Assembly (NCBI RefSeq): GCF_020172685.1
Contig: NZ_CP083986.1
Span: forward strand, 4,036,988-4,091,383
Direction of reading: 5' to 3'
From: [Mycobacterium] nativiensis
Lineage (GTDB): Bacteria > Actinomycetota > Actinomycetes > Mycobacteriales > Mycobacteriaceae
DNA: 54,396 nucleotides
A program made the position numbers and the translations under genes. The number at the start of each line of letters is the position of its first letter. Positions within the stretch are counted from its first letter, which is position 1. Below the pieces are notes generated by a model, which did not search any database, was not told where the DNA came from, and saw only the letters and a program-made list of their open reading frames with translations. This document shows positions 20,805 to 54,396 of this stretch, piece after piece.

Positions 20805-20807
20805 AAG

Positions 20808-22024: not shown

Positions 22025-22557
22025 TGAACCGTTTATTCGCCCTCGCCACCGCTGCCGGTGTCGTCCTGCCCATCGGGCTCAGCCCGTTGGGCGCCATGAG
22101 CACCGCACCCGACGGTGCTCACGCCGCCGTCTCGACGACGGACACCGTGTTGACCGGTCACGCCGACGACCTGGGGCTGCTCGCGGCCACCCCGTTGGAC
22201 GGGTTCCAGATCCCGGACCTGACGTCCCTCGGGTCAGAACCCGTCGACAGTGTCTCGGACCCCGACTTCATAAGCAATATTCATGATCTCGGCATCCTCA
22301 CCCTCACATCGGCGGCCGACCCGGACGATGATTACATTGCGTTCGCCATCCAAACACCACTCTTCACCGATATTTTGACGTCCGGCGCCGACCCCGAGGG
22401 GACCTTGGGCTTAGGCGACGCGAGCATCGGCCTGGCCGGGGCGACGGTGAACACCTTCGAGAGTTCGGTCTTCCCGTTCCTCGACGGTTCGTTCACCCTT
22501 CCCTTCCCGGATCCGTTCACCGATCTGTTCACTCTGCTTGTCCAACTGGGCTTTTGA
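22024..22557 (+). CDS. Small secreted protein of unknown function
   Basis: 177 residues. The ATG shares one base with the methyltransferase stop (TGATG) and is preceded by AAGAAAGGAAAT, a good ribosome binding site. A signal peptide of about 35 residues ends at GAHA. The mature part is acidic, rich in Asp, Thr, Leu and Phe, with no Cys. It ends in a strikingly Phe/Pro-rich hydrophobic tail (VFPFLDGSFTLPFPDPFTDL and so on). No known domain is recognised. Similar Phe/Asp-Pro tails occur in some mycobacterial PE/PPE-like surface proteins; that resemblance is weak. Being the last gene of a tightly overlapping operon suggests a shared process with the monooxygenase, membrane protein and methyltransferase. 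Confidence 0.75.
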   Translation: MNRLFALATAAGVVLPIGLSPLGAMSTAPDGAHAAVSTTDTVLTGHADDLGLLAATPLDGFQIPDLTSLGSEPVDSVSDPDFISNIHDLGILTLTSAADPDDDYIAFAIQTPLFTDILTSGADPEGTLGLGDASIGLAGATVNTFESSVFPFLDGSFTLPFPDPFTDLFTLLVQLGF

Positions 22558-22575
22558 GACCTATTCGACTGAGCC

Positions 22576-25071
22576 TTACTCGACGCTGACCGCCTCGATG
22601 ATGTTCAGCCGCGCCGCCCGTCGCGCCGGCGGCAACGCCCCGAGCAGGCTGATCACCAACGCGCCGAGGGTGAACGCCAGCGCCATCGGGCTGGGCCGGA
22701 AGGTGACGGCGAAGCTCATGATGTCCGCGCTCACCAGGCTGTACAACCATTGGTCCAGCAGGCCCAGCAGCAGCCCGAACGCACCGCCGACGGCACCGAT
22801 ACCCACCGCCTCGGCCAGCACCATCCGCACCGTGAACCGGCGACTGGCTCCCATGGCCCGCAGGACCCCGAGTTCGCGGCGCCGCTCCAGCACCGAGAGC
22901 GTCAGCGTGTTGAACAGGGCGACCGCGGCCACGACCACCACGATGACCAACACCGCGTTGGCGATGAACATGCTCTGGTGCAGCGGCGCCTCCAGTCCGG
23001 CCAGCGCCGCGTCGCCGTCGTAGACGTGGTTGGGCGCGGGCACCACCCGACGGACCTCGTCCACCAGGTGACGGCGGTCCACCCCGGGAGAGCTGGTGAT
23101 CTGCAGCGTGGTCGCCACCGGCCGGTCGAACCACGCCCGCAGGTGTTCGAGGCTGATCCCGACGGTGCCGATGACCGTGGAGAAGTACGGCACCAGGGCC
23201 AGCACCGTCGTGCGCTGCGGGCCGTGCGGCGTCTGCAACTCCAGCTGATCCCCCACACCGACATGCAGCGTCTTACCGAGATTCGCCGACAGCACCACCC
23301 CGTGGCCGGTGAGCACCTGCTCGCGGAGCGGCGGGTCGAGCGCGCGATACAGCGGATCGTGGGTTCCCGGGGCGAACCCGTCGAGTAGGACGCGGGTACC
23401 GCCGACCACTGCGAATCCGACGGCGCCCTCGGTGACCCGTGCGACGCCCGGCACGGCGATCACCTTGTCGGCGAGATCACCGGGCAGCGCGTCGGTGGGA
23501 TAGCTGTCGGGCGGATCGGCGCTCACCCACACGTCGGCTCCCGCCGCCGGCGCGAAGACGTGACGCGCCGAGGAGACCATGTCGGAGTTGGTGCCGGTGA
23601 TCATCACCGTGGTGATCACGGCGATGATCACGGTCATGACGGTGGCCCACACCCGCCGCGGCGCACGCTGAATGGTCGCGGCCGCCAGTGCCCCAACGGT
23701 TCCGAAGAGCCGGGCCGTGGCTGCGGTGGCATTCACGATCGGTGTGGTGAGCGCGAATCCGAGCGTGATCTCGGCGCAGAACAACGCGATCATGGCGGCA
23801 AAGGCCAGCGTTCCGGGACGCCCGAGCGCCATCGTGATCGACAGTGCGAACACCACGAGCGCCAACACCCCGCTCGCGACCCGCAGCCAGCGAGGAACGA
23901 CGTCGGCAGCTGACACCCCGGCCGGCGCCAGGGCCTCGATCGGCGCGACCTTGTAGACCTGCCGGGTGGTCATCGCGGCCGCGGCCACGCCGGTGAGCAC
24001 GGTCGCCGCCAGCGCGACCGGAATGGCGTAGCCGGGCAACAGGTATTCGACACGGGCCTCCAGCCCCTGGGTTATCGCCGGTGGCAGACGGCCGATCGCC
24101 ATGCGGCCCGCGAAGATCCCGGCGCCCGCCCCGAGGGCCCCGCCGATCAGTCCGAGGATCGCGGCCTCGGCCAGCATGTCGCGCACGATCATGGCGCGCC
24201 GGCCCCCGATCGCCCGCAGCATCGAGATGACCGGCCGGCGCGCGGTGATCGCCATGGTCATCGTCGTGTAGATCAGGAACGCGCCCACCACCAGCGCGAC
24301 CGCCGCGCCCATCAGCGCCATGTAGTTCATCAGCTTGACCCCGTCGCCGGCCCGAGCCGCCCGCAGACTCGGGTCCGCGACAACGGCCCGGCCGCCCACA
24401 GCTGCGGTGACCGCCGCACGCACCGCCGCCAGGTCGGCGTCGGGCTTGATGGTGATCAGCAGCGAGTCGAGCTGCCCCATACGCCCGGTGACGTTCTGCG
24501 CCAACGCAAGTGGGGCCAGCACGTAATGACCGCCGTTGAGGTCGGCGAGCTGCTTGCCGGCCAGCACCTCGGCGACGACGACCGACCCCGAACCCAGCTC
24601 GAACGTCTCGCCTTCGGCATGATCGACGCCGGGCCCGACCCGGACCCCGTTGGGCTGCTGCGCCGCCGGCGGTGCGCCGACGGCGGTCTTCAACGCACCT
24701 TCCAGCGCGGCACTGCTCGCATCCGCGCCAAGCAACAGCACCGGCCCCGCCGCTGTGGTCGCCGAAGTCCGGATCATCGGCGCCGCGGTCGCCACCCCGG
24801 GCACCGCGGCGACCTCCGCGACGATGCTGTCGGGGAATCCCGCATCGGTGATACCGGAGACCTCCAGGGCCGCGATGCCGGCGATCTGATCGGCCAGCCG
24901 ATTCACCGATCCGGTGATGGACCCGAAGATGCCGAAGATCGCCACCAGATACAGGGCCGAGACCGCCATGACGGCGATCGAGGCGGTAGTGCGCCGACGG
25001 TGCACGGCGAGTTCACGCACGCTGAACACCCGCAGCCGGCTCGCGGCGGCCGTCACCGTAGCCGGTCTCAT
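22576..25071 (-). CDS. ABC transporter permease, FtsX/MacB type with two FtsX domains
   Basis: 831 residues from ATG 25071, which overlaps the ATPase stop by 4 nt (ATGA). A first membrane helix (TTASIAVMAVSALYLVAIFGIF) is followed by a large extracytoplasmic domain. Then comes the first FtsX unit (MGAAVALVVGAFLIYTTMTMAI; AEAAILGLIGGALGAGAGI), a central membrane segment, a second extracytoplasmic domain, and a second FtsX unit (NAVLVIVVVVAAVALFNTLTLSVLERRRELGVLRAMGASRR near the end). The last four helices and the ERRRELGVLRA signature are typical. Such permeases move or extract lipids, lipoproteins or peptides, or work mechanically on periplasmic enzymes. The partner ATPase is the adjacent gene. 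Confidence 0.92.
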   Translation of the reverse strand: MRPATVTAAASRLRVFSVRELAVHRRRTTASIAVMAVSALYLVAIFGIFGSITGSVNRLADQIAGIAALEVSGITDAGFPDSIVAEVAAVPGVATAAPMIRTSATTAAGPVLLLGADASSAALEGALKTAVGAPPAAQQPNGVRVGPGVDHAEGETFELGSGSVVVAEVLAGKQLADLNGGHYVLAPLALAQNVTGRMGQLDSLLITIKPDADLAAVRAAVTAAVGGRAVVADPSLRAARAGDGVKLMNYMALMGAAVALVVGAFLIYTTMTMAITARRPVISMLRAIGGRRAMIVRDMLAEAAILGLIGGALGAGAGIFAGRMAIGRLPPAITQGLEARVEYLLPGYAIPVALAATVLTGVAAAAMTTRQVYKVAPIEALAPAGVSAADVVPRWLRVASGVLALVVFALSITMALGRPGTLAFAAMIALFCAEITLGFALTTPIVNATAATARLFGTVGALAAATIQRAPRRVWATVMTVIIAVITTVMITGTNSDMVSSARHVFAPAAGADVWVSADPPDSYPTDALPGDLADKVIAVPGVARVTEGAVGFAVVGGTRVLLDGFAPGTHDPLYRALDPPLREQVLTGHGVVLSANLGKTLHVGVGDQLELQTPHGPQRTTVLALVPYFSTVIGTVGISLEHLRAWFDRPVATTLQITSSPGVDRRHLVDEVRRVVPAPNHVYDGDAALAGLEAPLHQSMFIANAVLVIVVVVAAVALFNTLTLSVLERRRELGVLRAMGASRRFTVRMVLAEAVGIGAVGGAFGLLLGLLDQWLYSLVSADIMSFAVTFRPSPMALAFTLGALVISLLGALPPARRAARLNIIEAVSVE

Positions 25072-25790
25072 CGCGCAACCAGCGCGGCGTCGGAACCGAC
25101 CCGACCGTCCTGCAAGGTGATCACCCGATCGGTGGCGGCGGCAGCATCGGCATTGTGGGTCACCATCACCACCAGCCGCCCGCGGCCGCGCTCGTGTGCC
25201 ACCTCGGCGAGCAACGCGAGAATCGATGCGCCGGTGGCGGAGTCGAGATTCCCGGTGGGTTCGTCGGCGAGGATCAGCGCCGGGTCCATCATCAACGCTC
25301 GCGCCACCGCGACGCGCTGCATCTGGCCACCGGACAGCTCCGCGGGCCGGTGTTCGATGCGGTCGCCGAGACCGACCCGATCCAGCAACCGCACCGCATC
25401 GGCTCGGGCTCTGCCCATCCGAACACCGTCGAGCAGCGTCGGGACCGCCACGTTCTCCCACGCCGAGAGAGTCGGCAGCAGGTTGAAGAACTGGAAGACG
25501 AAACCCACCCGGTGATGGCGAAACCGCGACTGTGCCTCGTCGCCGAGTCGGCCGATCTCCTCACCGTCGAAGGCGATGGACCCGGCATCGGGGGTGTCCA
25601 ATGCGCCGAGCAGGTGCAGCAGCGTGCTTTTGCCCGCCCCCGACGGCCCGACGATCGCCACGAACCGTCCACCGGACAGGCGCAGGCTGATTCCATCGAG
25701 TGCCCGCACCGCCTGATCGCCGACCTGATACTCCCGCACCACATCGCGCAGGTCGATGGTGAGTGCGCGCTGGTCACGTCGTCTGCTCAT
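25068..25790 (-). CDS. ABC transporter ATP-binding protein (MacB/LolD type)
   Basis: 240 residues from ATG 25790, which has GGGAGG immediately upstream; longer starts upstream lack a site. Walker A is GPSGAGKS (48-55), Q-loop FVFQFFNLLPTLSAWENV, signature LSGGQMQRVAVARAL, Walker B LILADEPTGNLD, H-loop VVMVTHN. The Q-loop region and signature place it in the LolD/MacB/FtsE group that pairs with FtsX-type permeases. Its stop overlaps the permease start, so the two form one translational unit. Only a 159-bp region separates it from the divergent mmsA. Confidence 0.94.
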   Translation of the reverse strand: MSRRRDQRALTIDLRDVVREYQVGDQAVRALDGISLRLSGGRFVAIVGPSGAGKSTLLHLLGALDTPDAGSIAFDGEEIGRLGDEAQSRFRHHRVGFVFQFFNLLPTLSAWENVAVPTLLDGVRMGRARADAVRLLDRVGLGDRIEHRPAELSGGQMQRVAVARALMMDPALILADEPTGNLDSATGASILALLAEVAHERGRGRLVVMVTHNADAAAATDRVITLQDGRVGSDAALVAR

Positions 25791-25949: not shown

Positions 25950-27470
25950 ATGACCACACAGATCTCGCACTTCATCGACGGCAAACGCGTCGCGGGCCAC
26001 TCGCAGCGCACCGCCGACGTATTCGACCCCAGCACCGGCGCGGTGCAGGCGAAGGTCCCACTGGCCGACGCCGCCGAAGTCGACACCGCCGTCGCCGTAG
26101 CCGTCGCCGCCCAAAAGGACTGGGCCGCATACAACCCGCAGCGCCGGGCCCGGGTGCTGATGCGCTTCATCACGCTGGTCAACGAGAACATGGACGAATT
26201 GGCCGAGCTGCTCTCCCGCGAGCACGGCAAGACCGTGGAAGACGCCCGCGGCGACATCCAGCGCGGCATCGAGGTGATCGAGTTCTCCGTCGGCATCCCG
26301 CACCTGCTCAAGGGCGAGCACACCGAGGGCGCCGGCCCGGGTATCGACGTGTTCTCGCTGCGTCAGCCGCTGGGTGTGGTGGCCGGGATCACCCCGTTCA
26401 ACTTCCCGGCGATGATCCCGCTGTGGAAAGCCGGCCCCGCGCTGGCCTGCGGCAACGCGTTCATCCTCAAGCCGTCCGAGCGTGACCCGTCGGTGCCGGT
26501 GCGGCTGGCCGAACTGTTCGCCGAGGCCGGGTTGCCGTCCGGGGTGTTCCAGGTGGTGCACGGCGACAAGGAAGCCGTGGACGCCCTGCTGGTCCACCCC
26601 GACATCGCCGCAGTCGGGTTCGTGGGCAGCTCCGACATCGCCCAGTACATCTATGCGACGGCCACCGCGAACGGTAAACGCGCCCAGTGCTTCGGCGGAG
26701 CGAAGAACCACATGATCGTGATGCCCGACGCCGACCTGGACCAGGCGGTGGACGCGTTGATCGGCGCCGGATACGGCAGCGCCGGCGAGCGCTGCATGGC
26801 GATCAGCGTGGCGGTGCCGGTCGGCGAGGAGACCGCGGACCGCCTGCGCGCCAGGCTGGTCGAGCGGGTCAACCAGTTGCGGGTCGGGCACAGCCTGGAC
26901 CCCAAGTCCGACTACGGACCGCTGATTACCGAGGCCGCCCGCGACCGCGTCAAGGACTACATCGGCCAGGGCGTGGAAGCCGGCGCCGAATTGGTGGTCG
27001 ACGGGCGCGAACGGGCCAGCGATGACCTGACGTTCGCCGACCAGAGCCTGGAGAACGGCTACTACCTCGGGCCCACCCTGTTCGACCACGTCACCACGGA
27101 CATGTCGATCTACACCGACGAGATCTTCGGCCCGGTGCTGTGCATCGTCCGGGCAGCCAATTATGAGGAGGCACTGGCGCTTCCGTCCGAGCACGAGTAC
27201 GGCAACGGGGTGGCGATCTTCACCCGCGACGGGGACACCGCCCGCGACTTCACCTCCCGGGTTCAGGTCGGCATGGTCGGGGTGAACGTGCCGATCCCGG
27301 TGCCGGTGGCCTACCACAGCTTCGGGGGCTGGAAGCGGTCCGGGTTCGGCGACCTCAACCAGCACGGCACCGCATCGATCACCTTCTACACCAAGGTCAA
27401 GACCGTCACCCAGCGCTGGCCGTCGGGCATCAAGGACGGGGCCGAATTCCACATCCCCACCATGGGATGA
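25950..27470 (+). CDS. mmsA: Methylmalonate-semialdehyde dehydrogenase (CoA-acylating)
   Basis: 506 residues, an aldehyde dehydrogenase-fold enzyme. It converts methylmalonate semialdehyde and malonate semialdehyde to propionyl-CoA or acetyl-CoA with NAD and CoA, the last step of valine breakdown. The catalytic Cys282 (GERCMAIS) and Asn151 (TPFNFP) are present. The Glu general base of ordinary aldehyde dehydrogenases is replaced (CFGGAKN near 247-253), as expected for the CoA-acylating subfamily. SFGGWKRSGFGDLNQHG near the end is the subfamily signature. The gene order mmsA-fadE9-mmsB matches M. tuberculosis Rv0753c-Rv0751c. A palindromic operator precedes it. Confidence 0.96.
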   Translation: MTTQISHFIDGKRVAGHSQRTADVFDPSTGAVQAKVPLADAAEVDTAVAVAVAAQKDWAAYNPQRRARVLMRFITLVNENMDELAELLSREHGKTVEDARGDIQRGIEVIEFSVGIPHLLKGEHTEGAGPGIDVFSLRQPLGVVAGITPFNFPAMIPLWKAGPALACGNAFILKPSERDPSVPVRLAELFAEAGLPSGVFQVVHGDKEAVDALLVHPDIAAVGFVGSSDIAQYIYATATANGKRAQCFGGAKNHMIVMPDADLDQAVDALIGAGYGSAGERCMAISVAVPVGEETADRLRARLVERVNQLRVGHSLDPKSDYGPLITEAARDRVKDYIGQGVEAGAELVVDGRERASDDLTFADQSLENGYYLGPTLFDHVTTDMSIYTDEIFGPVLCIVRAANYEEALALPSEHEYGNGVAIFTRDGDTARDFTSRVQVGMVGVNVPIPVPVAYHSFGGWKRSGFGDLNQHGTASITFYTKVKTVTQRWPSGIKDGAEFHIPTMG

Positions 27471-28645
27471 CGACAGAAACAGTGAACACGACTATGGACG
27501 ACGAAGAACGGGTGATCGTCGAGACCGCGGCGGCGTTCGCCGAGAAGCGGCTCGCCCCGTACGCACTGGAATGGGATGCCACGCACCACTTCCCGGTCGA
27601 CGTGATGCGCGAGGCCGCCGGTCTCGGGATGGCGGCGATCTACTGCAACGAGGATGCCGGCGGATCAGGCCTGCGCCGCCTGGACGGGGTGCGCATCTTC
27701 GAGCAGCTGTCGATCGCCGACCCGGTGATCGCCGCTTATCTGTCGATCCACAACATGTGCGCCTGGATGATCGACAGCTACGGCACCGAAGAACAGCGCA
27801 AATCCTGGGTGCCCAAGCTGGCGTCGATGGACTCCGTCGCCAGTTACTGCCTCACCGAACCCGGCGCGGGTTCGGACGCCAGCGCGTTGAGCACCCGCGC
27901 GGTGCGGTCCGGATCGGACTACGTCCTCGACGGCGTCAAGCAGTTCATCTCCGGCGCCGGTGTTTCGGACGTGTACGTGGTGATGGCCCGGACCGGGGAC
28001 GACAGCCCCCGCGGGATTTCAACGTTCATCGTCGAAAAGGGAGCGCCTGGACTGAGTTTCGGCGCCGCCGAGCAGAAGATGGGCTGGAATTCCCAGCCGA
28101 CCGCACAGGTGATCTTCGAGGGAGTGCGGGTGCCCGCCGAGGCGATGCTGGGCGGACCCGAAGGCGAAGGAACCGGTTTCTCGATCGCCATGAACGGCCT
28201 CAACGGCGGCCGGATCAACATCGCGGCCTGCTCGCTGGGCGGCGGCCAGGCCGCGTTCAACAAGACCGGCAGCTATCTGGCCGACCGCGAGGCATTCGGC
28301 AAGCCGCTGCTCGACGAGCCGACGATCCGGTTCACCCTCGCCGACATGGCCACCGCGCTTGAGACCTCCCGACTGCTGCTGTGGCGGGCGGCGACCGCGC
28401 TCGACGACGGCTCCGCAGACAAGGTGGAGCTGTGCGCGATGGCCAAGCGCTACGTGACCGACGCCTGCTTCGGTGTCGCCGACCAGGCCCTGCAACTGCA
28501 CGGCGGCTACGGGTATCTGCGCGAATACGGTCTGGAGAAAATCGTCCGGGATCTGCGGGTGCACCGCATCCTGGAGGGCACCAACGAGATCATGCGGCTG
28601 GTGATCGGCCGGGCCGAAGCCAACCGCGTCCGAGCCGGCCAGTAG
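27467..28645 (+). CDS. fadE9: Acyl-CoA dehydrogenase (isobutyryl-CoA dehydrogenase-like)
   Basis: 392 residues from ATG 27467, overlapping mmsA by 4 nt; an internal start at residue 10 (MDDEERV) is possible. The family blocks are YCLTEPGAGSDASAL (FAD/substrate loop), GWNSQPTAQVIFEGVRVP, QLHGGYGYLREYGLEKIVRD and the C-terminal LEGTNEIMRLVIGR with the catalytic Glu position. Gene context and the compact isobutyryl-CoA dehydrogenase-like sequence point to oxidation of isobutyryl-CoA to methacrylyl-CoA in valine degradation. It forms an operon with mmsA and mmsB. Confidence 0.93.
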   Translation: MTTETVNTTMDDEERVIVETAAAFAEKRLAPYALEWDATHHFPVDVMREAAGLGMAAIYCNEDAGGSGLRRLDGVRIFEQLSIADPVIAAYLSIHNMCAWMIDSYGTEEQRKSWVPKLASMDSVASYCLTEPGAGSDASALSTRAVRSGSDYVLDGVKQFISGAGVSDVYVVMARTGDDSPRGISTFIVEKGAPGLSFGAAEQKMGWNSQPTAQVIFEGVRVPAEAMLGGPEGEGTGFSIAMNGLNGGRINIAACSLGGGQAAFNKTGSYLADREAFGKPLLDEPTIRFTLADMATALETSRLLLWRAATALDDGSADKVELCAMAKRYVTDACFGVADQALQLHGGYGYLREYGLEKIVRDLRVHRILEGTNEIMRLVIGRAEANRVRAGQ

Positions 28646-28675
28646 CCGGTCACCAGCAGGGATAAAGGAGCACAC

Positions 28676-29599: not shown

Positions 29600-30850
29600 A
29601 TGTCCTCAATCGCAGAGTCTGGCATCACGGAGCTGAGTCCGGCTCAGCGATTGGACGTGCTGTTTGAGGCGATGGCGGAGCTGGTCGGGCAACGCAATGC
29701 CATTGATGGGCGCCTAGTCGAGATCGTCGCCGAGATCGAACGCGACGAGCTGTGGGGCAACACCGGGTGCCGCTCGATCCCGGCACTGGTGGCGTGGAAG
29801 ACTGGGGTGTCACCGGGAAACGCCCACACCCTCGCCGCCGTGGCCCACCGGCTCCAGGAGTTCCCCCGCTGCGCGCAGGGGATGCGAGACGGCCGCTTCT
29901 CTCTGGATCAGGTCGGGGTCATCGCGGAGCGCGCCGCCGACGGCTCCGACGAGCACTACGCGCAGCTGGCCGGTGTCGCCACCGTCACCCAACTGCGCAC
30001 TGCCGTCAAACTCGAACCACGCCCCGAACCCGATCGTCGGCCCGAACCGGCGCGCTCGATCACCAAAACCAGCGACGAACACGGCAGCTGCTGGCGCATC
30101 AAACTCCCGCATCTGGATGCCGCGAAGTTCGACGCCGCTCTGCAATCACACCTTGACGCATTGATCGCCGCGTGGAAACGCGATCACGACAGTGGCGAGG
30201 GTGCTTCAGATCAGCGGCCACCGTTGCCGAGTACCGCCGATGCGTTCCTGCGTCTGGTCGAGGCGGGCTGGGACACCGAGGTAGCGGCTCGCCCGCAAGG
30301 GCAGCACACCACCGTAGTGGTGCACCTCGACGTGGAGCAGAAAGCTGCCGCACTGCATTTGGGGCCGCTGCTGACCGACGCCGCACGCCAATACCTGACC
30401 TGCGATGCCATCTGCGAGGTCTGGTTCGAACGCCACGGCGAACCCCTCGGCGCGGGCCGCACCACCCGCACCATCAGTCGCCGGCTGCGCCGCGCCCTGG
30501 AGCACCGTGACCGGACCTGCGTGGTACCCGGCTGCGGCGCCACCCGGGGCCTACACGCCCACCACATCGTCCACTGGGAAAACGGCGGCCCCACCGAACT
30601 GGCCAACCTCGTGCTGGTCTGCCCCTATCACCACCGGCGACACCACAGCGGCATCATCACCATCACCGGCACCGCAGCCAACCTCACCGTCACCGACCGC
30701 AGGGGCCGGCCACTAACGGCGGCATCGCTGGCCCGGCCCCCGACGAAGCCCGCACCCGCGGTCAAACCCTGCAAAGGACCCACCGGCGAACGCGCCCAAT
30801 GGTGGTGGTACCAACCCTTCCAACCCCAACCACCACCGACAAACAACTAA
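29600..30850 (+). CDS. DUF222 / HNH endonuclease-like protein (13E12 family)
   Basis: 416 residues. The N-terminal DUF222 domain (about 10-330) includes LWGNTGCRSIPALVAWKTGVSPGNAHTL in its first part. The C-terminal HNH nuclease motif (about 305-350) reads CVVPGCGATRGLHAHHIVHW, then NGGPTELANLVLVCPYHHRRHHSG; the two CxxC-type zinc ligands and the HH-N-H catalytic set look intact. A Pro/Gln-rich tail ends the protein. Members are multicopy in actinobacteria (the 13E12 repeat family of M. tuberculosis), are thought to be mobile or selfish elements, and have no firmly established function. No terminal repeats are visible here apart from the hairpin at the start codon. Confidence 0.9.
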   Translation: MSSIAESGITELSPAQRLDVLFEAMAELVGQRNAIDGRLVEIVAEIERDELWGNTGCRSIPALVAWKTGVSPGNAHTLAAVAHRLQEFPRCAQGMRDGRFSLDQVGVIAERAADGSDEHYAQLAGVATVTQLRTAVKLEPRPEPDRRPEPARSITKTSDEHGSCWRIKLPHLDAAKFDAALQSHLDALIAAWKRDHDSGEGASDQRPPLPSTADAFLRLVEAGWDTEVAARPQGQHTTVVVHLDVEQKAAALHLGPLLTDAARQYLTCDAICEVWFERHGEPLGAGRTTRTISRRLRRALEHRDRTCVVPGCGATRGLHAHHIVHWENGGPTELANLVLVCPYHHRRHHSGIITITGTAANLTVTDRRGRPLTAASLARPPTKPAPAVKPCKGPTGERAQWWWYQPFQPQPPPTNN

Positions 30851-42913: not shown

Positions 42914-44695
42914 CTACCAGCGCGACTCCCCCAGCCACAGCACCTGGACGCCGTTGACCGACCGCTCCGCCTGCTCGACGATCCCGGCCAGCGACCGCAT
43001 CAGCAGGCTGCCGACGGCTTCGGTCAGCCCCGCCGCGGGCTGCGAGGACTGTCGGGGCCGGACGAACTCCCACAGTGACGAGCCGGGGTAGGACACGGTG
43101 CGGACCTGCGCATCCTCGTCAAGGCCGGCCAGCACCTTGGCCCGGTGGATCGCGGTGCGCAGTCCGCCCAGTTCGTCGACCAGGCCGCGCTCGGCCGCAT
43201 CGGCGCCGGTCCACACCCGCCCGCGTGCCACCGCGTCCACCTCTTCGGTCGACAGGTTGCGGCCTTGCGCGACCCGCGCCACGAAGTCGTCGTAGAACAG
43301 ATCGGTCAGGGTCTCGACCTGCCCCTGCTGCTCCGCGGTGAACGGGGCGTTGCTCGACCAGGCGTCGGCGTTGGCGCCGGTGCGCACCGTCTCGGTGCCC
43401 ACACCGAGACGGTCCTTGAGCTGGCGGGCGACCAGCTTTCCGGTCACCACCCCGATCGAGCCGGTGATGGTGCCCGGGTTGGCGACGATGGCGTCGGTGG
43501 CCGCCGAGATGTAGTACCCGCCGGAGGCGGCGACCGCCCCCATCGACGCCACCACCGGTTTGCCGGCCTCGCGGGCCTGCCGCACCGCCCGCCAAATGGT
43601 CTCCGACCCGGTGACCGCCCCGCCCGGACTGTCCACCCGCAGCACGATCGCGGCGACGTCGTCGTCGGCGGCCGCCTCGCGCAGCGCCGCGGCGATGGTG
43701 TCGCCCCCGACGTTGCGATTGCCCAACGGGGACAGCTGCGGCCCGCCGGTGCCGCTGACGATCGCTCCGGCCACCGTCACCACCGCGATCGCCGGCTTGC
43801 CTTTGCGGCCCGGCAGGGACGGCGCCCCCGAACGCTCGGCGGTGGCGCGGGCATAGCGCGTCAGGTACAGCCGCGGCGGCGCATCCGCGCTGTCCGCATT
43901 GACATGCGAATCTCCTTGGCCGCCTGCAAGTTCGGCGATCCGGCCGTAGGCTTCGTCGCGGAATCCGATCCGGTCGATCAGGCCCGCCGACACCGCGTCG
44001 TCGCGCAGCAGCGGCGCCCGGTCGGCCAATGCGTCGACGGCGGTGGCATCGACGTTGCGGGATTCGGCGACGGCCGCACGGACCTGGGCGTGCAGGCTCT
44101 CCACCAGCGCGGTGTCGGCTTCACGGTGCGCATCGGTGTAGGAGTCTTCGGTGAACATGTTGGCGGCCGACTTGTACTCGCCGCGGGCCACGAACTGCGC
44201 CTCGATGCCGGCCTTGTCCAGGGCCGTGCGCAAAAACGTCGCGTTGGTGGCGAAGCCGATCAGCCCGAGCATCCCCGAGGGCTGCATCCACACCTCGCCG
44301 AAGGCCGACGCTAGGTAGTAGGACAGCGTGCCCGGGTAGGTTTCGGCCCAGGCCAGCGACGGCTTGACCGCGGTGAAGGCGGCGATCGCAGCCCGTAGCT
44401 CCTGCACCGGTCCGGGCGAGGCCGCCGAAAGCTGCACTCGCGCAATCAACCCGGCGACCCGAGGATCCTCGGCCGCACGGTAGATCGCGTCCACCACCTC
44501 ACGCAGCACCGGCGGCTGCCCGCCGGAGCGGATCAGCGCTAGCGGATCGAAGGCGCCGGTCTCATGCGGCAGCGTCTGCAGGTCGAGTTCGAGTACGACA
44601 CCGTTGGGCACGCCGTGATGCCGGGCGGTGTCGATGCGACGGGCGACGCCGCGCAGGTCATCCAGGCCGGGCACCCCGGGCAGCAAGGTGAACAT
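42914..44695 (-). CDS. sppA: Signal peptide peptidase SppA (protease IV, 67K type)
   Basis: 593 residues, the long tandem-domain type. The general base Lys175 lies in the N-terminal domain (RGEYKSAANMF) and the nucleophile Ser391 in the C-terminal domain (AVAASGGYYISAAT), with VLRVDSPGGAVTGSETIWRA and NPGTITGSIGVVTGKL as flanking blocks. It degrades cleaved signal peptides at the membrane. It corresponds by position and length to M. tuberculosis sppA (Rv0724). No classical N-terminal membrane helix is evident here, so its membrane attachment may differ from the E. coli enzyme. A TANNNT box 6 nt before the ATG suggests a leaderless transcript. Confidence 0.94.
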   Translation of the reverse strand: MFTLLPGVPGLDDLRGVARRIDTARHHGVPNGVVLELDLQTLPHETGAFDPLALIRSGGQPPVLREVVDAIYRAAEDPRVAGLIARVQLSAASPGPVQELRAAIAAFTAVKPSLAWAETYPGTLSYYLASAFGEVWMQPSGMLGLIGFATNATFLRTALDKAGIEAQFVARGEYKSAANMFTEDSYTDAHREADTALVESLHAQVRAAVAESRNVDATAVDALADRAPLLRDDAVSAGLIDRIGFRDEAYGRIAELAGGQGDSHVNADSADAPPRLYLTRYARATAERSGAPSLPGRKGKPAIAVVTVAGAIVSGTGGPQLSPLGNRNVGGDTIAAALREAAADDDVAAIVLRVDSPGGAVTGSETIWRAVRQAREAGKPVVASMGAVAASGGYYISAATDAIVANPGTITGSIGVVTGKLVARQLKDRLGVGTETVRTGANADAWSSNAPFTAEQQGQVETLTDLFYDDFVARVAQGRNLSTEEVDAVARGRVWTGADAAERGLVDELGGLRTAIHRAKVLAGLDEDAQVRTVSYPGSSLWEFVRPRQSSQPAAGLTEAVGSLLMRSLAGIVEQAERSVNGVQVLWLGESRW

Positions 44696-44760: not shown

Positions 44761-44872
44761 GGGCTTGATTCGGCGGTCCAGCTTCGGCTCTCCTTCGTCG
44801 AGTCTCGCTAACCGCCGGGCTTGCATCGGCGGTCCAGCTTCGGCTCTCCTTCGTCGAGTCTCGCTAACCGCC
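44761..44872. repeat. Tandem 56-bp direct repeat (two units)
   Basis: Units 44761-44816 and 44817-44872 differ at two positions only. Each runs gggcttg..tcggcggtcc, agcttcggctctccttcg, tcgagtctcgctaaccgcc. GGCGGT near the left end and ACCGCC at the right end are inverted. The second unit's right end covers the TAG stop codon and last Gly codons of the PGRS-like gene. No gene lies between this pair and sppA. Confidence 0.85.
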
Positions 44873-47800
44873 GATGACGATGAGGTGGCTGGGAGCGCCG
44901 GCCCCACCGGCCCCGCCAGTGCTGCCGGTCGGTGCGCTACCCGGCTGGCCCGCGGTTCCGGCCGCTTCCCCGCCGTCGCCGCCGGTGCCGCCCGTCCCGC
45001 CGGCACCGCCGTTGCCGCCCGCGCCACCGGTGCCGCCATTGCCGGAGAAGGCATTGACCAGGCCGCCGCCGGCTGCACCGCCGTCGCCGCCGTCGCCGCC
45101 GTTGGTGCCTGCCGCCGAACCGGAACCGCCCTTGCCGCCCGAGCCGCCATCGGCTCCCGCGACGAGACCGACGCCGGCGAGGTTGTTGCCGCCGGTTCCG
45201 CCGGTGCCACCGGCACCACCGGTGCTGCCGGCCGTGCTGCCGGCCGCGCCACCGGTGCCACCGGCACCACCCGCGCCCCCCTGTAAGAGACCGACGAGGT
45301 TGCTGCCGCCGGTACCACCCATGCCGCCGGCACCGCCCACACTGCCGGCCCCGCTGCCGGCGGCGCCACCGGTGCCACCGGCACCACCCACGGCGCCGGT
45401 AGCCGCACCGAGCACGTTGCTGCCACCGGTGCCGCCCATTCCGCCGGCGCCGCCGATGCTGCCGTCGGCGTTGCTCGCCGCGCCGCCCGTGCCGCCGACG
45501 CCGCCCTTGCCGCCGCCGACGGTTCCGGCCAGGCCGTTTCCGCCATGACCGCCCTGTCCGCCTTCGCCCGCGACACTGCCGGCCTGGTTGGCGGCGCCAC
45601 CGCCGGTGCCGCCCGTGCCACCGGTTCCACCACCGCCGCCGACCACGGCGACGGCCGAATCACCACCGGCACCACCATCGCCGCCTGCACCGCTGGTACC
45701 GGCTGCACCCTGGTCGACTCCGCTGCCGCCGCCGACGCCGGCCACGCCGCCGGTGCCGCCGTGACCGCCCTGGCCGCCCGCTCCGAGCAGGCCGACGAGA
45801 TCACTCCCGCCCTTGCCTCCGGCGCCACCGACCCCGCCGTCGCCGCCGGCGCCGTTGCTGCCGGCTGCTCCACCGGCGGCGGTTCCTGCCACGCCGCCCA
45901 CACCACCGACGCCACCGGTACCACCGGCGGCACCGTCCTGCGGCCCCGCGGCGCCCACACCGGCCAAGGAATCGGCACCCAGACCGCCGACACCACCTGT
46001 GCCACCTGTCCCACCGGCTCCACCTGCGCCGGCGTTGAAACCGTCTCCGCCGGTACCCCCGGTGCCACCGGCACCGGCATTGCCACCGACGCCGGGGGGG
46101 ATGCCGCCGATCCCCAGGATTCCACCGGTGCCGGGCGTGCCGGTCACACCGGTACCGCCCTGGCCACCGGTGCCGCCCGCGCCGCCGTCGCCCTGCTGGG
46201 CGCGGGTGCCGTCGGTTTCCAGGCCGCCCTGACCGCCGGTGCCGCCGGTGCCGCCCTTCCCACCGGTGCCACCCGCCAGAGTCGAGGTCCCGTTGGTCCC
46301 CTGCGCGCCATTACCACCGACGCCACCGTCGCCGCCGACACCGGCATGCCCGTCGGCGCCGGTGGTGCCGCCGGTGCCGGACGCGGCCTGGTCGGCGCCG
46401 GCGCCGTTGAGACCGCCAGCGCCCGCTGTGCCAGCTGCGCCACCGTGGCCGGCGTTGCCGCCGGTGCCCCCGGTACCGCCAGTTCCGCCGTTGGCGCCGC
46501 TCAGCGTCGGCGAGCTGAAACCGCTGCCCCCGGTACCGCCCGCGCCGCCGTTGCCGCCCAGGCCGCCGTCACCGGCGTCACCGCCCTTGCCACCCGCGCC
46601 GACGTTGCCGTTGGTGCTGCCGACACCTGCGGCGCCACCTTGGCCGCCGGTCCCACCGCTACCGCCGGTGCCACCGTCGATTCCGTCGCCACCGGTGCCA
46701 CCGACGCCGGCGGCGACAGTGGCCGTACCAGCCGTACCGGTGCCACCGGTGTTGCCGTTGGACCCGGTGGTGCCGGTCGCGCCATCACCGCCGATACCGC
46801 CTTCACCACCGTTGCCACCGACACCCTGCAAGCCGGTGTCGCCGTCGGTTCCCGACGCGGCCCGATCCGCGCCGGCCCCATTAAGGCCACCGACTCCGGC
46901 CTTTCCGCCCGCGCCACCGTCACCACCGGTACCACCCGCGCCACCGATGCCGCCGTTGCCGCCGGCCAGCCCCGTCTCTCCGAGCTGGTCATAGCCCGCG
47001 CCACCGGTACCACCATTGCCGCCGGTTCCGCCCTGACCACCGGTCCCGCCGCTGCCACCGATTCCGCCGGCACCCACGACACCGTCAGTGGACCCGGTGC
47101 CCGCCGCACCTCCCTGGCCACCGCTACCGCCGTTGCCACCCGCCAGGCCCTGCCCGCCGGTGTGCCCGGCCTCGCCGGTACCCCCGTTGGGATCAGTGCT
47201 GTCACCGGCCGTGCCCGTGACACCGTCGGTACCGGTCGACCCGATCCCGCCGGTCGCACCATCGCCACCGATACCGCCTTCACCACCGTTGCCACCGACA
47301 CCCTGCAAACCGGTGTCGCCGTCGGTTCCCGACGCGGCCCGATCCGCGCCGGCCCCATTAAGGCCACCGACTCCGGCCTTTCCGCCCGCGCCACCGTCAC
47401 CACCGGTACCACCCGCGCCACCGATGCCGCCGTTGCCGCCGGCCAGCCCCGTCTCTCCGAGCTGGTCATAGCCCGCGCCACCGGTACCACCATTGCCGCC
47501 GGTTCCGCCCTGACCACCGGTCCCGCCGCTGCCACCGATTCCGCCGGCACCCACGACACCGTCAGTGGACCCGGTGCCCGCCGCACCTCCCTGGCCACCG
47601 CTACCGCCGTTGCCACCCGCCAGGCCCTGCCCGCCGGTGTGCCCGGCCTCGCCGGTACCCCCGTTGGGATCAGTGCTGTCACCGGCCGTGCCCGTGACAC
47701 CGTCGGTACCGGTCGACCCGATCCCGCCGGCGTTGCCGTTTCCGCCGTTGCCGCCGACGCCACCGTTTCCGCCAACGCCCTGGGTGCCCGCCGTGCCGCC

Positions 47801-50800
47801 AGCACCCGAGCCCGCCTGACCGCCGGCACCCATACCTCCGGCGCCACCGCTGCCGGCGGCACCCCCGGCACCACCATTGCCGCCCGCACCACCCACAGCA
47901 CCGTCACCACCGGAGGTGCCGGCAGCCGCCGTCAGATCCGAGGCGGCGTCATAGCCGTTGCCACCACTACCGCCGACACCACCGGTTCCACCATTGCCGC
48001 CATTGCCACCGGCACCACCAACACCACCGAGACCCTGGGTGCCATCGGTCGAACCATGCCCGCCAGCACCACCATTGCCACCGACACCACCACTGCTACC
48101 GGCGCCACCGGTCTCGCCGGTGCCGCCGTCAGTGCCTGCAGTGCCATCCACCGACAACGCCGACCCATCGGTGCCATCAGTACCCGCATCACCGACACCA
48201 CCGGTTGCCCCGTCAAAGCCGCGACCACCCACACCGCCGTTGCCGCCATCACCACCGGCACCCTGGGCGCCATCGAAACCACTGGCCGCACCACCCGCGG
48301 TCAGACCACCCGCGCCGCCGGCACCACCATCGCCGCCCACACCACCAGCACCACCAGCACCGCCAGCGACCCCGGCCTGAGTGGAGTCGGCACCGACAGC
48401 GCCCTCAGCACCCGTGCCACCCTTGCCACCGTTGCCACCGGTCCCGGCCACACCATCGGTGCCGTTGGCGGCCTGCACTCCGCCGGCACCGGTGCCACCG
48501 GCACCACCCGCGGCGGCATTACCGCCGGCACCACCCGTCCCACCGGTCGTACCGTCGGCACCCGGGGTCGCACCGTCAATGCCCGCTGAACCCGTGGAAC
48601 CGTCACCGCCGGAACCGCCATTGCCGCCGACACCACCAGCACCCTCGGTGCCCGCCGTGCCGCCAGCACCCGAGCCCGCCTGACCGCCGGCACCCATACC
48701 TCCGGCGCCACCGCTGCCGGCGGCACCCCCGGCACCACCATTGCCACCGGCACCACCCACAGCACCGTCACCACCGGAGGTGCCGGCAGCCGCCGTCAGA
48801 TCCGAGGCGGCGTCATAGCCATTGCCACCGCTACCGCCGACACCACCGGTGCCACCATTGCCGCCATTGCCACCGACGCCACCAACACCGCCGAGGCCCT
48901 GGGTGCCATCGGTCGAACCATGCCCGCCAGCACCACCATTGCCACCGACACCACCACTGCTACCGGCGCCACCGGCAACACCATCACCACCAGCAGTGCC
49001 AGCCGTGCCATCCACCGACAACGCCGACCCATCGGTGCCATCAGTACCCGCATCACCGACACCACCGGTAACTCCGTCGAAGCCGCGACCACCCACACCG
49101 CCGTTGCCGCCATCACCACCGGCACCCTGGGCGCCATCGAAACCACTGGCCGCACCACCCGCAGTCAAACCACCCGCGCCGCCGGCACCACCATCGCCGC
49201 CCACACCACCAGCACCACCAGCACCACCGGCGACCCCGGCCTGCGTCGACGCGGCACCGACAGCGCCCTCAGCACCCGTGCCACCCTTGCCACCGTTGCC
49301 ACCGGTCCCGGCCACACCATCGGTGCCGTTGGCGGCCTGCACTCCGCCGGCACCGATACCGCCGGCACCACCGGCGGCGGCATTACCGCCGGCACCACCC
49401 GTCCCACCGGTCGTACCGTCGGCACCCGGGGTCGCACCGTCAATGCCCGCTGAACCCGTGGAACCGTCACCGCCGGAACCGCCATTGCCGCCGACACCAC
49501 CAGCACCCTCGGTGCCCGCCGTGCCGCCAGCACCCGAGCCCGCCTGACCGCCGGCACCCATACCTCCGGCGCCACCGCTGCCGGCGGCACCCCCGGCACC
49601 ACCATTGCCACCGGCACCACCCACAGCACCGTCACCACCGGAGGTGCCGGCAGCCGCCGTCAGATCCGAGGCGGCGTCATAGCCATTGCCACCGCTACCG
49701 CCGACACCACCGGTGCCACCATTGCCGCCATTGCCACCGACGCCACCAACACCGCCGAGGCCCTGGGTGCCATCGGTCGAACCATGCCCGCCAGCACCAC
49801 CATTGCCACCGACACCACCACTGCTACCGGCGCCACCGGCAACACCATCACCACCAGCAGTGCCAGCCGTGCCATCCACCGACAACGCCGACCCATCGGT
49901 GCCATCAGTACCCGCATCACCGACACCACCGGTAACTCCGTCGAAGCCGCGACCACCCACACCGCCGTTGCCGCCATCACCACCGGCACCCTGGGCGCCA
50001 TCGAAACCACTGGCCGCACCACCCGCAGTCAAACCACCCGCGCCGCCGGCACCACCATCGCCGCCCACACCACCAGCACCACCAGCACCACCGGCGACCC
50101 CGGCCTGCGTCGACGCGGCACCGACAGCGCCCTCAGCACCCGTGCCACCCTTGCCACCGTTGCCACCGGTCCCGGCCACACCATCGGTGCCGTTGGCGGC
50201 CTGCACTCCGCCGGCACCGATACCGCCGGCACCACCGGCTGCGGCATTACCGCCGGCACCACCCGTGCCACCGGTACCACCGTTGTCACCGGGGTTCGCG
50301 CCGACATCACCGACGGCACCGACTGCGCCGTCACCGCCGGAACCACCATTGCCGCCCACCCCGCCGGCACCCTGATCACCGACCTGACCGGAAGCACCCG
50401 ACGCCGCCTGGCCGCCCGCGCCAGTACCGCCGGCGCCACCGGCGCCCGCCGCACCCCCGGCACCACCCGCACCGCCGACACCACCGACTGCGCCATCACC
50501 ACCGGAGGTCCCGGGCAACGCAGCCGCATCCAACGCGGCGTCATACCCATTGCCGCCCATGCCACCGGAACCACCGGTGCCGCCGGTGCCGCCATTGCCG
50601 CCGACGCCACCAACACCGCCGAGGCCCTGGGTGCCATCGACCGAGCCATGCCCGGCCGCACCACCATTGCCCCCGGAACCACCGGCACTACCGGCGCCTC
50701 CGGTCTCACCGACACCACCGACATCACCGGCCGTACTCGCCGACGTCGAGGTGCCGTCGTTGCCGTTACCGCCGGTGTTACCGGCCCCACCGGTTACCCC

Positions 50801-53800
50801 GTCAAAGCCGCGACCACCCACACCGCCGTTGCCGCCGTCACCACCAACACCCTGGGCGCCATCGAAACCACTGGCGGCACCACCCGCGGTCAGACCACCC
50901 GCGCCGCCGGCACCACCATCACCGCCGGCGCCGCCGTCTTGCCCGATGCCACCAGCGACCCCGGCCTGCGTCGACGCCAACCCGGCAGCACCATCAGCAC
51001 CGGTACCGCCCTTGCCGCCGGCACCCCCGTGACCGGCGGTGCCATCGGCGCCGCTGGCGGCCTGCACCCCGCCGGCACCTATACCGCCGGCGCCACCCGC
51101 GGCGGCGTTGCCACCCCTGCCACCCGTGCCACCGGTGGCGCCGGCCTCCCCGGCGTTCACTCCATTGCCACCGGCCGCGCCCGTGGAACCGTCGCCACCG
51201 GAACCGCCATTGCCGCCGACCCCGCCGGCACCCTGGTCACCGACCTGACCGGCAGCACCCGACGCCGCCTGGCCGCCCGCGCCAGTACCCCCGGCGCCAC
51301 CGGCGCCCGCCGCACCACCGGCACCACCGGCGCCGCCCGCGCCACCGAGCGCACCGTCACCACCGGAGGTGCCGGCAGCCGCCGTCAGATCCGAGGCCGC
51401 GTCATAGCCATTGCCACCCGAGCCGCCGGCACCACCGGTGCCGCCGGTGCCGCCATTGCCGCCGACACCACCAACACCGCCGAGGCCCTGGGCACCGTCA
51501 ACCGATCCGTGACCACCCGCGCCACCGTTGCCACCCACACCGCCGGCACTTCCCGCCCCACCGGTGTCACCGACACCGCCGACATCACCGGCCGTACTCG
51601 CCGACGTCGAGGTGCCGTCGTTGCCATTACCGCCGGTATTACCGGCCCCACCGGCTACCCCATCGAAGCCGCGACCACCCACACCGCCATTGCCGCCGGC
51701 ACCACCAACACCCTGGGCGCCATCGAAACCACTGGCCGCACCACCCGCGGTCAGACCACCGACGCCTCCGGCGCCACCATCACCGCCCAGACCACCATCG
51801 CCACCGGCACCACCAGCAACGCCCGCCTGCGTCGACGCCAACCCGGCCGCACCGTCCGCACCATTCCCGCCCCGACCGCCATCACCCCCCCGCCCCGCGA
51901 CACCCCCACTACCCCCGCCGGCACCGCCGCTGCCGCCCGCACCGGCGTTGCCGCCGTCACCGCCTGCTCCGCCGGTCATACCCCTCGCGCCCGGAGCCAC
52001 ACCGGCGTCGCCGATCGCACCCGCGGCGGCATTGCCACCCGAACCGCCGTCACCGCCGGCGCCCAACAAGCTGCCGTTACCACCCCGGCCGCCGTTGCCG
52101 CCGCTGGTGCCCGGCGCCGCGGTCGGGTCGCTGGCGGCGTCGTAGCCGTTGCCCCCGTCACCGCCGTTGCCCTGCTGACCGGACGGGCCGTTACCGGCCT
52201 GCCCGTCCGACCCAGTTGTCGAACCGGATCCACCCTCACCGGCCGCGCCGGCCTTACCGACCGCACCGCCGTCACCGCCGTTGCCCGCATCCGGATGTGC
52301 GGCGCTACCGTCGGCCCCGCGGCCCCCGTCGGCGGCCACCCCCGCGTCGCCGCCGTTGCCACCGGTGCCGCCGGCGCCCTGGCCGCCCGCGGTCGCGCCG
52401 TTGATGCCCTCGCCGCCGGCACCACCGGTACCGCCGGCCCCGCCCGCCCCGCCGCTGCCGGCTGCGCCACCGGCACCGCCGTTGCCGGTCCCGCCGTTCG
52501 CGAACGTGCCGGCTGCACCGGCGACGCCGTCGCCACCGTCACCGCCGTTGCCTCCAGTGGCCCCGACACCGCCCTGGCCGCCGCGATGGCCCGTGCCGGA
52601 ACCGACGCCACCAGCGCCGCCCGCGCCGCCGGCCTGACCAACGATGCCGTCCACACCAGCCTCGCCCGGCTGGGTGCCGGAAATGCCGTTGGCGCCGGAC
52701 GCACCCGCGGTGCCATCGCCACCGTTGCCGCCGTCACCGCTGCCGATGGCGTTGCCGCCGTTCCCGCCACCACCGCCGAATGCGCCGCCGCTGCCTGCGT
52801 CGCCCCCGTCGCCCCGCTCGGTGCCGCCGCTGCCGCCGTCACCGCCGCTACCGCCGGTGCTGCCGCCGATTCCGGTGCCATCACCGCCATCACCGCCGTG
52901 GCCGCCGTCGCCGTCAGCGCCGGCGTCACCGCCGGCACCCCCGTTGCCACCACTGCCTATGCCCTGCCCGGCGCCGCCGTTCCCGCCGGTCCCGCCGTTG
53001 CCGGCCTCGGTGCCGCCCGCGCCGCCGGCACCACCTTCTCCACCAGCGGCATCCTCACCGCCACCGCCGCCGTTACCACCGGCCCCACCGTTGCCGATGG
53101 TTCCACCGCTGCCTCCTGCGCCACCGGCACCGCCGGCCACCCCGGGAGTCGTCGAAGTGAAGCCATCACCGCCGGCACCGCCATGGGTCTCGCTGGGAGC
53201 CGGACCCGATCCGTCGACCCCGCCGACACCTGCCTGGCCGGTGCCCGCTGCCCCGCCGGTTCCGGCTGCACCACCGGCGCCACCCGCGCCGACCTTTCCG
53301 GCGTCACCCGCGTTGCCGCCGGCACCGCCATCGAGATGGTTCGCATCGCCGTCCGCGCCGTCGCCGCCGGTACCCCCGGCTGCGGCTTTACCTCCGGCAC
53401 CGCCGTCGCCGCCGTTGCCGTTGACGCCCGCCGCACCGGTCAGCGAGGTTGCCGCTCCCCCATTGCCGCCGATTCCACCGGCGCCGCCGGCCCCACCGTC
53501 GCCACCGGCTTGTCCGGCGACGCCGGCATCACCGGGGGCCGCGCCGTTCGCCCCGGCCAATCCGGCGACTCCGTCACCGCCATGGCCGCCATCGCCGGCA
53601 TTACCACCGGCACCACCGTTGGCGCCGGTGCCGCCCGCACCGCCGCTCCCGCCGGCGCCACCACTGCCACCCGAAACCCCGGGCGCCGCATCAGGATCGA
53701 TCGCCTGGTCGTATCCGGCCCCGCCGTTGCCGCCGTTGCCGCCGGCGCCGCCGTTGCCGTCGTCCGCGTACGTGGTGCCGTCAGCCTCCAGGCCGCCCCG

Positions 53801-54377
53801 ACCACCGTTTCCGCCGGCGCCACCGCTGCCGCCGGCGGTGCCGTCCGGGTCGGCGGCGGTACCGGCGACACCGTCAATCCCGTTGCCGCCCTTGCCGCCG
53901 TTGCCGCCGGCCCCCGCGCGGCCATCGGCGCCATCGGCTGCCGCCACTCCGCCGCCGCCCAGTCCGCCGACGCCGCCCAGGCCCGCGTCACCGCCGTTTC
54001 CGCCATTGATTCCGGCGGTGCCATTCGGGTCGGCCGCCGTGCCGGCAGCACCGTCCGCACCGTCGGCCCCGGCACCTCCGTTACCGCCTGCCCCGCCGAC
54101 CCCGCCCACGCCGTCCACACCGCCGGTACCCGTCGCGCCGGACGACCCGAAGAACGTGGCGCCCAGACCGCCCGCGCCGGCCTGCCCGCCGGCTCCGCCA
54201 CTACCGCCGTTTCCGCCGCTGGTCGCATTGCCACCATTGCCGTCGCCGCCGCCGGCGAAAGTGCCTGCAGCCCCGTCGAAGCCGGCACCACCCGCGCCCC
54301 CGGCACCGCCGGTACCCCCGGCACCGCCGTTGCCACCGTTGCCGAGCCACGTCGAACCGGCCCCGCCGTCGCCGCCC
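44864..54377 (-). CDS. Giant PGRS-like glycine-rich protein, 5' end missing
   Basis: One uninterrupted frame of about 3170 codons built of GGAGGxGG-type PGRS triplets with spacer blocks such as GNGYDAASDLTAAAGTSGGD, GGAASGFDGAQG and GRGFDGVTGG. The stop is TAG at 44864-44866, after ...SHLIVIGG. The 5' end, and so any PE domain and signal, is beyond the contig edge; I call it PGRS-like and not PE_PGRS for that reason. The apparent start codon in the final bases belongs to adapter sequence, so the first true residue is not known. Internal repeats of 159 and about 288 residues are present. It lacks the C-terminal LLFGNGG-type ending common in PE_PGRS proteins. Such proteins are usually surface-exposed, often through ESX-5. 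Its length exceeds most annotated members. Confidence 0.85.
46776..47729. repeat. 477-bp tandem repeat within the PGRS-like gene, two copies
   Basis: Copies at 46776-47252 and 47253-47729 are nearly identical; markers at two ends of the unit (46823/47300 and 47222/47699) are both offset by exactly 477 bp, or 159 codons. Each codes for one block with GAGYDQLGETGLAGGNGG and GLNGAGADRAASGTDGDTGL. The frame is kept across the junction. Confidence 0.85.
47785..51940. repeat. About 864-bp tandem repeat within the PGRS-like gene, about five copies
   Basis: The marker gtcagatccgagg occurs at 47931, 48795, 49659 and 51384, spaced 864, 864 and 1725 bp (twice about 862); a diverged copy fills the last gap. 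The unit codes for about 288 residues, from GYDAASDLTAAAGTSGG back to the next equivalent. The copies at about 48649-49512 and 49513-50270 look identical where I compared them. Outer copies (about 50376-51940) are more diverged. Confidence 0.8.
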
Positions 54378-54396
54378 CTGTCTCTTATACACATCT
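54378..54396. other. Untrimmed sequencing adapter (Tn5/Nextera mosaic end)
   Basis: The last 19 bases are ctgtctcttatacacatct, the exact reverse complement of the 19-bp mosaic end used in tagmentation libraries. It is not genomic. Read on the minus strand it creates a false ATG and the artefact peptides MCIRDR and MYKRQ. Confidence 0.97.

What the first reader, a model, noticed from the sequence alone, without database searches (positions are those of the whole stretch)
54378..54396. Library adapter at the contig end creates a false protein start
The final 19 bases equal the tagmentation mosaic-end sequence. Minus-strand translation gives MCIRDR fused to the PGRS-like protein, and another frame gives MYKRQ, so any database entry with these N-termini from this contig is an artefact. 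The giant gene is truly 5'-truncated and its start, PE domain and promoter are unknown.
Basis: partly seen in the sequence, partly recalled or inferred. Interest (0 to 1): 0.75.

Follow-up and report, generated by a model that had tools for sequence, protein, structure and literature searches.

The report
Sequencing adapter faking protein ends
The last 19 bases are leftover laboratory adapter, not bacterial DNA; they invent a false protein start, and the same adapter sits at 94 places of this supposedly one-piece genome and in many public protein records.

Summary
Bases 54378-54396 are an exact Tn5/Nextera mosaic end (ME); codons inside it create false starts MCIRDR (54394, minus strand, fused to a glycine-rich PGRS-like frame) and MYKRQ (54392). 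The place is not the end of a stand-alone contig but an internal gap of a one-contig, 5.28 Mb Mycobacterium assembly with 94 exact MEs: 83 abut N runs and 11 run into Nextera tails that stop at a gap or the record start. Beyond the window's ME lie 39 N, a P5-end remnant (11/12 bases) and poly-A, as expected for adapter read-through. Twelve short contigs lie between; 11 match relative G069 in ascending order, eight at 94-95%, versus 80-88% for the four main stretches there, so a second mycobacterium is probably mixed in. Two tag-only searches found 451 and 104 database proteins. Verdict: artefact, well explained, useful for quality control.

The parts
54378..54396 (-). Tn5/Nextera mosaic end (19 bases), synthetic library DNA; last genomic base is 54377
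44864..54394 (-). Adapter-started ORF of 3176 aa (MCIRDR + PGRS-like frame). The genuine part is a 5'-cut glycine-rich (PGRS-like) coding frame ending at the stop at 44864; its 5' piece lies elsewhere in the assembly
   Evidence: Pfam finds no family in two pieces of the window part; the PGRS hit is on the 5' piece
54201..54392 (-). False 63-aa ORF with N-terminus MYKRQ (GTG start inside the adapter)
42914..44695 (-). sppA-like signal peptide peptidase (Peptidase_S49), downstream neighbour used to find the orthologous locus

Best explanation
The 19 bases are the Tn5 mosaic end added by Nextera tagmentation. An insert shorter than the read was read through into ME, read-1 tail, i5 index and P5, and then off the template (poly-A plus noise). 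The untrimmed reads were assembled as a contig tip. Contigs were then laid along a reference into one pseudo-chromosome with 100-N gaps. The recognisable adapter core was masked to N, and the ME was left in place. Because ME read inward carries ATG and GTG codons in its two open frames, it manufactures MCIRDR and MYKRQ starts. Read outward it manufactures LSLIHI, CLLYTS and VSYTHL ends. The gene is a PGRS-repeat protein with a signal-like N-terminus, cut in two by the same kind of gap, with fragments of what is probably a second mycobacterium placed between the halves. Shown: ME identity, gap context, adapter arithmetic, 5' piece, missing PE hit, two copies of the same loci at different divergence. 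Inferred: order of processing steps, who masked the adapter, second organism as source, secretion by the signal.
For: Exact ME, 0 of 100 shuffles. 94 exact copies in G000, reversed control 0. 83 of 94 abut N, 11 of 94 continue in Nextera tails. Of 42 MEs next to a masked run under 90 N, 37 decode as adapter + 8-base index + P5/P7 with poly-A after (at most 2 mismatches, at least 8 A in 12); 5 miss that rule. The window's own end decodes: 39 N, 11/12 of the P5 end, 12/12 A. In the genus 11 of 198 genomes carry ME, so it is not a conserved sequence. In the capped scans 121 of 133 (GTDB) and 123 of 127 (IMG/VR) copies lie within 100 bases of a contig end (recounted in 74). Homology of contig 4096947 to its closest relatives starts at the first base after the ME. 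Tag-only queries return 451 and 104 proteins, those listed belonging to many different Pfam families. SKESA passage names this 19-mer a known Illumina adaptor.
Against: No reads could be inspected, so read-through is inferred from the assembly. 41 of 94 MEs abut runs of 90 N or more, which cannot be decoded. 5 of 42 masked runs miss the decoding rule, though four of these five still match the expected remnant at 9 to 14 bases. One of 133 GTDB copies (L082) has no contig end, gap or tail beside it. Of the 12 wedged contigs two match G069 at only 83-88% and one hardly at all, so the second-organism part is not uniform.
Confidence: 0.97

Rival explanations
1. The ME is real DNA of the strain: an engineered Tn5-type transposon (mutant library) inserted in the PGRS gene.
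For: Engineered Tn5 elements carry the same 19-base ME (recalled).
Against: 94 copies, each at a gap, within 80 bases of one, or at the record start; flanks are library read-1/read-2 tails and P5/P7 remnants. A transposon body was not searched for.
Confidence: 0.01
2. One reading: a plain contig end with a 5'-truncated PE_PGRS gene whose start is missing from the data.
For: The frame does run off the window's end.
Against: The 5' piece is in the assembly and gives a PGRS hit but no PE hit; orthologues in G016 and G069 begin with the same signal-like sequence.
Confidence: 0.04
3. The short contigs between the two gene pieces are true segmental duplications of this genome rather than a second mycobacterium.
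For: Genome quality figures give only 1.67 contamination; one wedged contig, 4096947, has no second copy in G000 at E <= 1e-100.
Against: 11 of 12 align to G069 in ascending order over about 200 kb; 8 of 12 do so at 93.8-95.2%, while main stretches over the same interval average 79.5-87.5%. Contig 4091663 and window 27241-28647 both map to one G069 locus.
Confidence: 0.1

Closest known systems
Illumina Nextera transposon adapters (Tn5 mosaic end with read-1/read-2 tails)
   Same: 19/19 identity, read-1 and read-2 tails, index-length gap, P5/P7 remnants, poly-A
   Different: Nothing differs; the outer adapter is mostly masked to N here
PE_PGRS proteins (Mycobacterium)
   Same: Glycine-rich PGRS repeats; PF21526 hit on the 5' piece
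   Different: No PE hit; signal-like N-terminus instead; lies between rplO and sppA
Adapter contamination of public assemblies (known problem)
   Same: Untrimmed adapter at contig tips (SKESA passage)
   Different: Here 94 copies hide inside a single gap-joined record; translated tags were not found in print, apart from the guppy MYKRQN case

Membership tests
Nextera/Tn5 mosaic-end adapter | Exact 19-base mosaic end | tested here: met
   19/19
Nextera/Tn5 mosaic-end adapter | Read-1 or read-2 tail outside the ME | tested here: met
   Masked at the window's own end; seen at 11 of 94 genome copies (19, 20)
Nextera/Tn5 mosaic-end adapter | Index, P5/P7 end and poly-A run-off beyond | tested here: met
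   Window end: 39 N, 11/12 P5 residue, 12/12 A; 37 of 42 decodable copies overall
Nextera/Tn5 mosaic-end adapter | Presence in raw reads at read ends | not testable with these tools
   No reads held
PE_PGRS | N-terminal PE domain (about 100 aa; passages) | tested here: not met
   Pfam scan of the 5' piece and of the starts of the G016 and G069 orthologues: PGRS only
PE_PGRS | PGRS (GGA-GGX) repeats | tested here: met
   PF21526 at 1.1e-12 on the 5' piece; no Pfam hit on two window pieces
PE_PGRS | GRPLI linker motif | not tested
   Not searched as a motif
Secreted PGRS-repeat protein with signal peptide | Positively charged then hydrophobic N-terminus with a small-residue site | tested here: inconclusive
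   Seen by eye in 3 of 3 aligned starts; no signal predictor was run

The most novel reading that the evidence does not exclude
Translated adapters form a systematic class of false protein ends (MCIRDR, MYKRQ, LSLIHI, CLLYTS, VSYTHL and longer forms with P7/poly-A) spread across unrelated families and sources, including NCBI and UniRef entries and named phage CDSs, and not described as such in the papers searched. One-piece gap-joined genomes hide them from checks that look only at record ends.
Probability: 0.8. Interest if true: 0.45.

Novelty: not a real feature. Interest (0 to 1): 0.33.

Why it matters
The MCIRDR protein would enter databases as a giant surface protein with an invented start, and its true start as a short protein with an invented end. 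A single-record genome looks finished but holds 94 adapter scars and probably fragments of a second mycobacterium, which misleads gene counts, synteny and PGRS catalogues. The peptide tags give a very cheap screen for protein databases: unrelated families sharing an exact 11-residue end are adapter-tagged.

Tried and rejected
Chance match: rejected. Conserved genomic motif: rejected, 11 of 198 genus genomes. Engineered transposon: rejected. PE_PGRS membership: not met. Searching the adapter-started protein for its database entry gave nothing usable. Paper searches for the peptide tags: MCIRDR in none and MYKRQ in one paper, a fish receptor; longer tags in none. Broader literature searches were seen as listings; none of the titles and abstracts shown was on translated adapters. 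NCBIfam gave no family for the PGRS starts. The species could not be named. The genus is taken from G052, whose contig C39 (last ME at 90302-90320) fits the named record NZ_LZSU01000039.1, Mycobacterium sp. 852013-51886_SCH5428379, 90320 bases. E. coli complete genomes gave no match to the 33-base read-1 adapter in 'near' mode, which needs 28 exact bases.

Full report
OBSERVATION. The last 19 bases of the window (54378-54396) are, on the minus strand, an exact Tn5/Nextera mosaic end (ME). It is the only match in the window at up to 3 mismatches, and none was seen in 100 dinucleotide shuffles. The three inward frames read RCV*, DVYKRQ and MCIRDR. One frame is stopped inside the ME. The other two contain start codons: ATG at 54394, giving a 3176-aa ORF to 44864, and GTG at 54392, giving a 63-aa ORF.

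WHERE IT LIES. The window is G000:C1:4036988-4091383 of a genome held as one contig of 5,276,002 bases. Just outside it are 39 N, 140 AT-rich bases and 100 N; its left edge also abuts a 100-N gap. The place is an internal gap of a gap-joined pseudo-chromosome, so checks that look only at record ends would miss it.

GENOME-WIDE COUNT. G000 holds 94 exact MEs plus three with 1-2 mismatches; the reversed control gives none. I looked at the surroundings of all 94 (93, the last, all again). 83 abut an N run, and the other 11 continue outward into Nextera read-1 or read-2 tail bases, two of them with one mismatch, and then reach N within 80 bases or the start of the record. 41 of the 83 abut runs of 90 N or more and cannot be decoded. 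The other 42 abut shorter masked runs, whose length plus leftover bases can be compared with tail + 8-base index + P5 or P7. With a rule of at most 2 mismatches and at least 8 A in the next 12 bases, 37 of 42 fit and 5 do not. The window's own end fits: 39 N, then 11 of 12 bases of the P5 end, then 12 of 12 A. This is the trace of an insert shorter than the read. Adapter letters are recalled; the SKESA paper (PMC6172800, one passage read) names the 19-mer as a known Illumina adaptor.

FALSE ORFS. Of the 93 MEs, the MCIRDR frame is open for at least 60 aa in 49 and the MYKRQ frame in 55; at least one of them is in 76 of 93. Two boundary checks were made. The window's false protein (first 666 residues) aligns to G016 from residue 6 on, where the adapter stops. 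The contig at 4096947 aligns to its closest relatives from the first base after its ME.

NOT A GENUS FEATURE. 11 of 198 genus genomes hold an exact ME, G000 included. G074, whose first contig is 5.9 Mb, has 21 copies (20 places listed, all in that contig); of three places opened there, two have MEs flanking a 100-N gap and one has a facing pair in continuous sequence. Of 16 loci opened from nine other genus genomes, 15 have the ME within 94 bases of a contig end and one borders N. Of the 12 farther GTDB copies, 7 border N within 4 bases, 4 carry adapter tails, and one (L082) has neither; the 4 farther IMG/VR copies all carry tail bases (recounted in 74).

THE GENE. Downstream of the frame is an sppA-like gene. 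In G022 the ribosomal gene rplO is followed by sppA with no glycine-rich ORF between. In G016 and G069 a long glycine-rich ORF stands between them (G016 also has a PPE gene). Those ORFs begin with MSRR... followed by a hydrophobic stretch and a small-residue site. In G000 the matching 5' piece is at another ME-tipped contig, minus strand, from about 4110938 to 4110158, next to rplO. It is 62-64% identical to the other two starts. It has a PF21526 PGRS hit and no PE hit, and it runs out into LSLIHI, the outward-reading adapter artefact. That contig has no N across the 39.8 kb fetched and its first 5.8 kb matches G069 at 87.5%, like the main contigs. So the start is not unknown, and a PE domain was tested for and not found. 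A signal function is inferred only. Pfam gives no family on two pieces of the window part itself, so the PGRS label for the window part rests on alignment to the relatives' genes.

WHAT LIES BETWEEN. Between the window's end and that contig the record places 12 short contigs of at least 300 bases. 11 of 12 align to G069 in ascending order (3865 to 4069 kb), eight at 93.8-95.2%, three at 91.1, 87.9 and 83.3%; the twelfth has only a weak partial match. Main stretches over the same part of G069 average 79.5% (window), 87.5%, 84.0% and 83.8%; two main stretches left of the window average 82.1% and 67.4%. Contig 4091663 is 88% identical to window 27241-28647; both map to one locus in G069 and one in G022, the contig at 94% and 91%, the larger window region at 83% and 86%. 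Contig 4096947 has no second copy in G000 at E <= 1e-100, so not every wedged contig is a duplicate. The simplest reading is fragments of a second mycobacterium, stacked in reference order. The contamination figure of G000 is only 1.67, and read depth was not available.

DATABASES. MCIRDR in a single N-terminal tag could not be searched. Artificial queries with one N-terminal and one C-terminal adapter tag and X between found 451 proteins (of 460 candidates) and 104 (of 181) at E <= 10 among 5.77 billion, limited to about 78-248 aa. All 120 listed in the first carry both tags. In the second 84 of 104 carry both, 17 only the C-terminal and 3 only the N-terminal one. The Pfam domains shown for them are very diverse. 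Sources named include NCBI entries of Klebsiella, Pseudomonas, Escherichia and Staphylococcus, and UniRef entries of the first two. Some carry translated P7 and poly-A as well. The 33-base read-1 adapter is in 26 of 50,697 phage records, 8 of 72,556 plasmid records and 0 of 20,395 E. coli records at a search needing 28 exact bases. In two phage records an annotated protein ends in adapter peptide: a tail-fibre CDS ending LSLIHI and a terminase CDS ending through CLLYTSDAADD.

LITERATURE. Searches of the held library for the peptide tags found MCIRDR in no paper and MYKRQ in one, and the longer tags in none. The one paper (PMC4658143, one passage read) quotes a guppy receptor beginning MYKRQN, so MYKRQ alone does not prove an artefact. 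For PE_PGRS architecture I read passages of PMC7550000.

VERDICT. A library artefact, certain for practical purposes. The added value is that the record is a gap-joined and probably mixed assembly with 94 scars, that the gene's start is elsewhere and lacks a PE hit, and that the tags pollute protein databases.

Noticed in passing
G000:C1:4091663-4109895 (L250, L297, L261): Twelve short contigs, 11 in ascending G069 order and eight of them 94-95% identical to it, probably from a second mycobacterium, placed between two halves of one gene.
   Followed up: partly
window 1: The window's left edge also abuts a 100-N gap; contig 4035720-4036887 just left of it is 93.7% identical to G069, like the suspected second organism.
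   Followed up: partly
L334 (G074:C1:133000-134200): Another Mycobacterium genome (first contig 5.9 Mb) has two MEs facing each other with a degraded adapter pair between and no N gap, i.e. adapter inside continuous sequence.
   Followed up: no
L391 (LR595870.1), L392 (MK373775.1): Public phage records whose annotated terminase and tail-fibre CDSs end in adapter-coded peptides.
   Followed up: partly
L082 3073-3091: The one GTDB copy of the ME, among the 133 seen, away from any contig end, gap or adapter tail; unexplained.
   Followed up: no
L331 2572-4029: In relative G016 a PPE gene with a SHOCT-like end lies between sppA and the PGRS gene; no such gene lies between them in the window or was seen at the G069 locus.
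   Followed up: no
window 29600-30850: DUF222/HNH gene with two further 78-80% copies in G000 and similar copies in relatives.
   Followed up: no
window 19654-25763: Matches G022 in inverted order relative to its surroundings.
   Followed up: no
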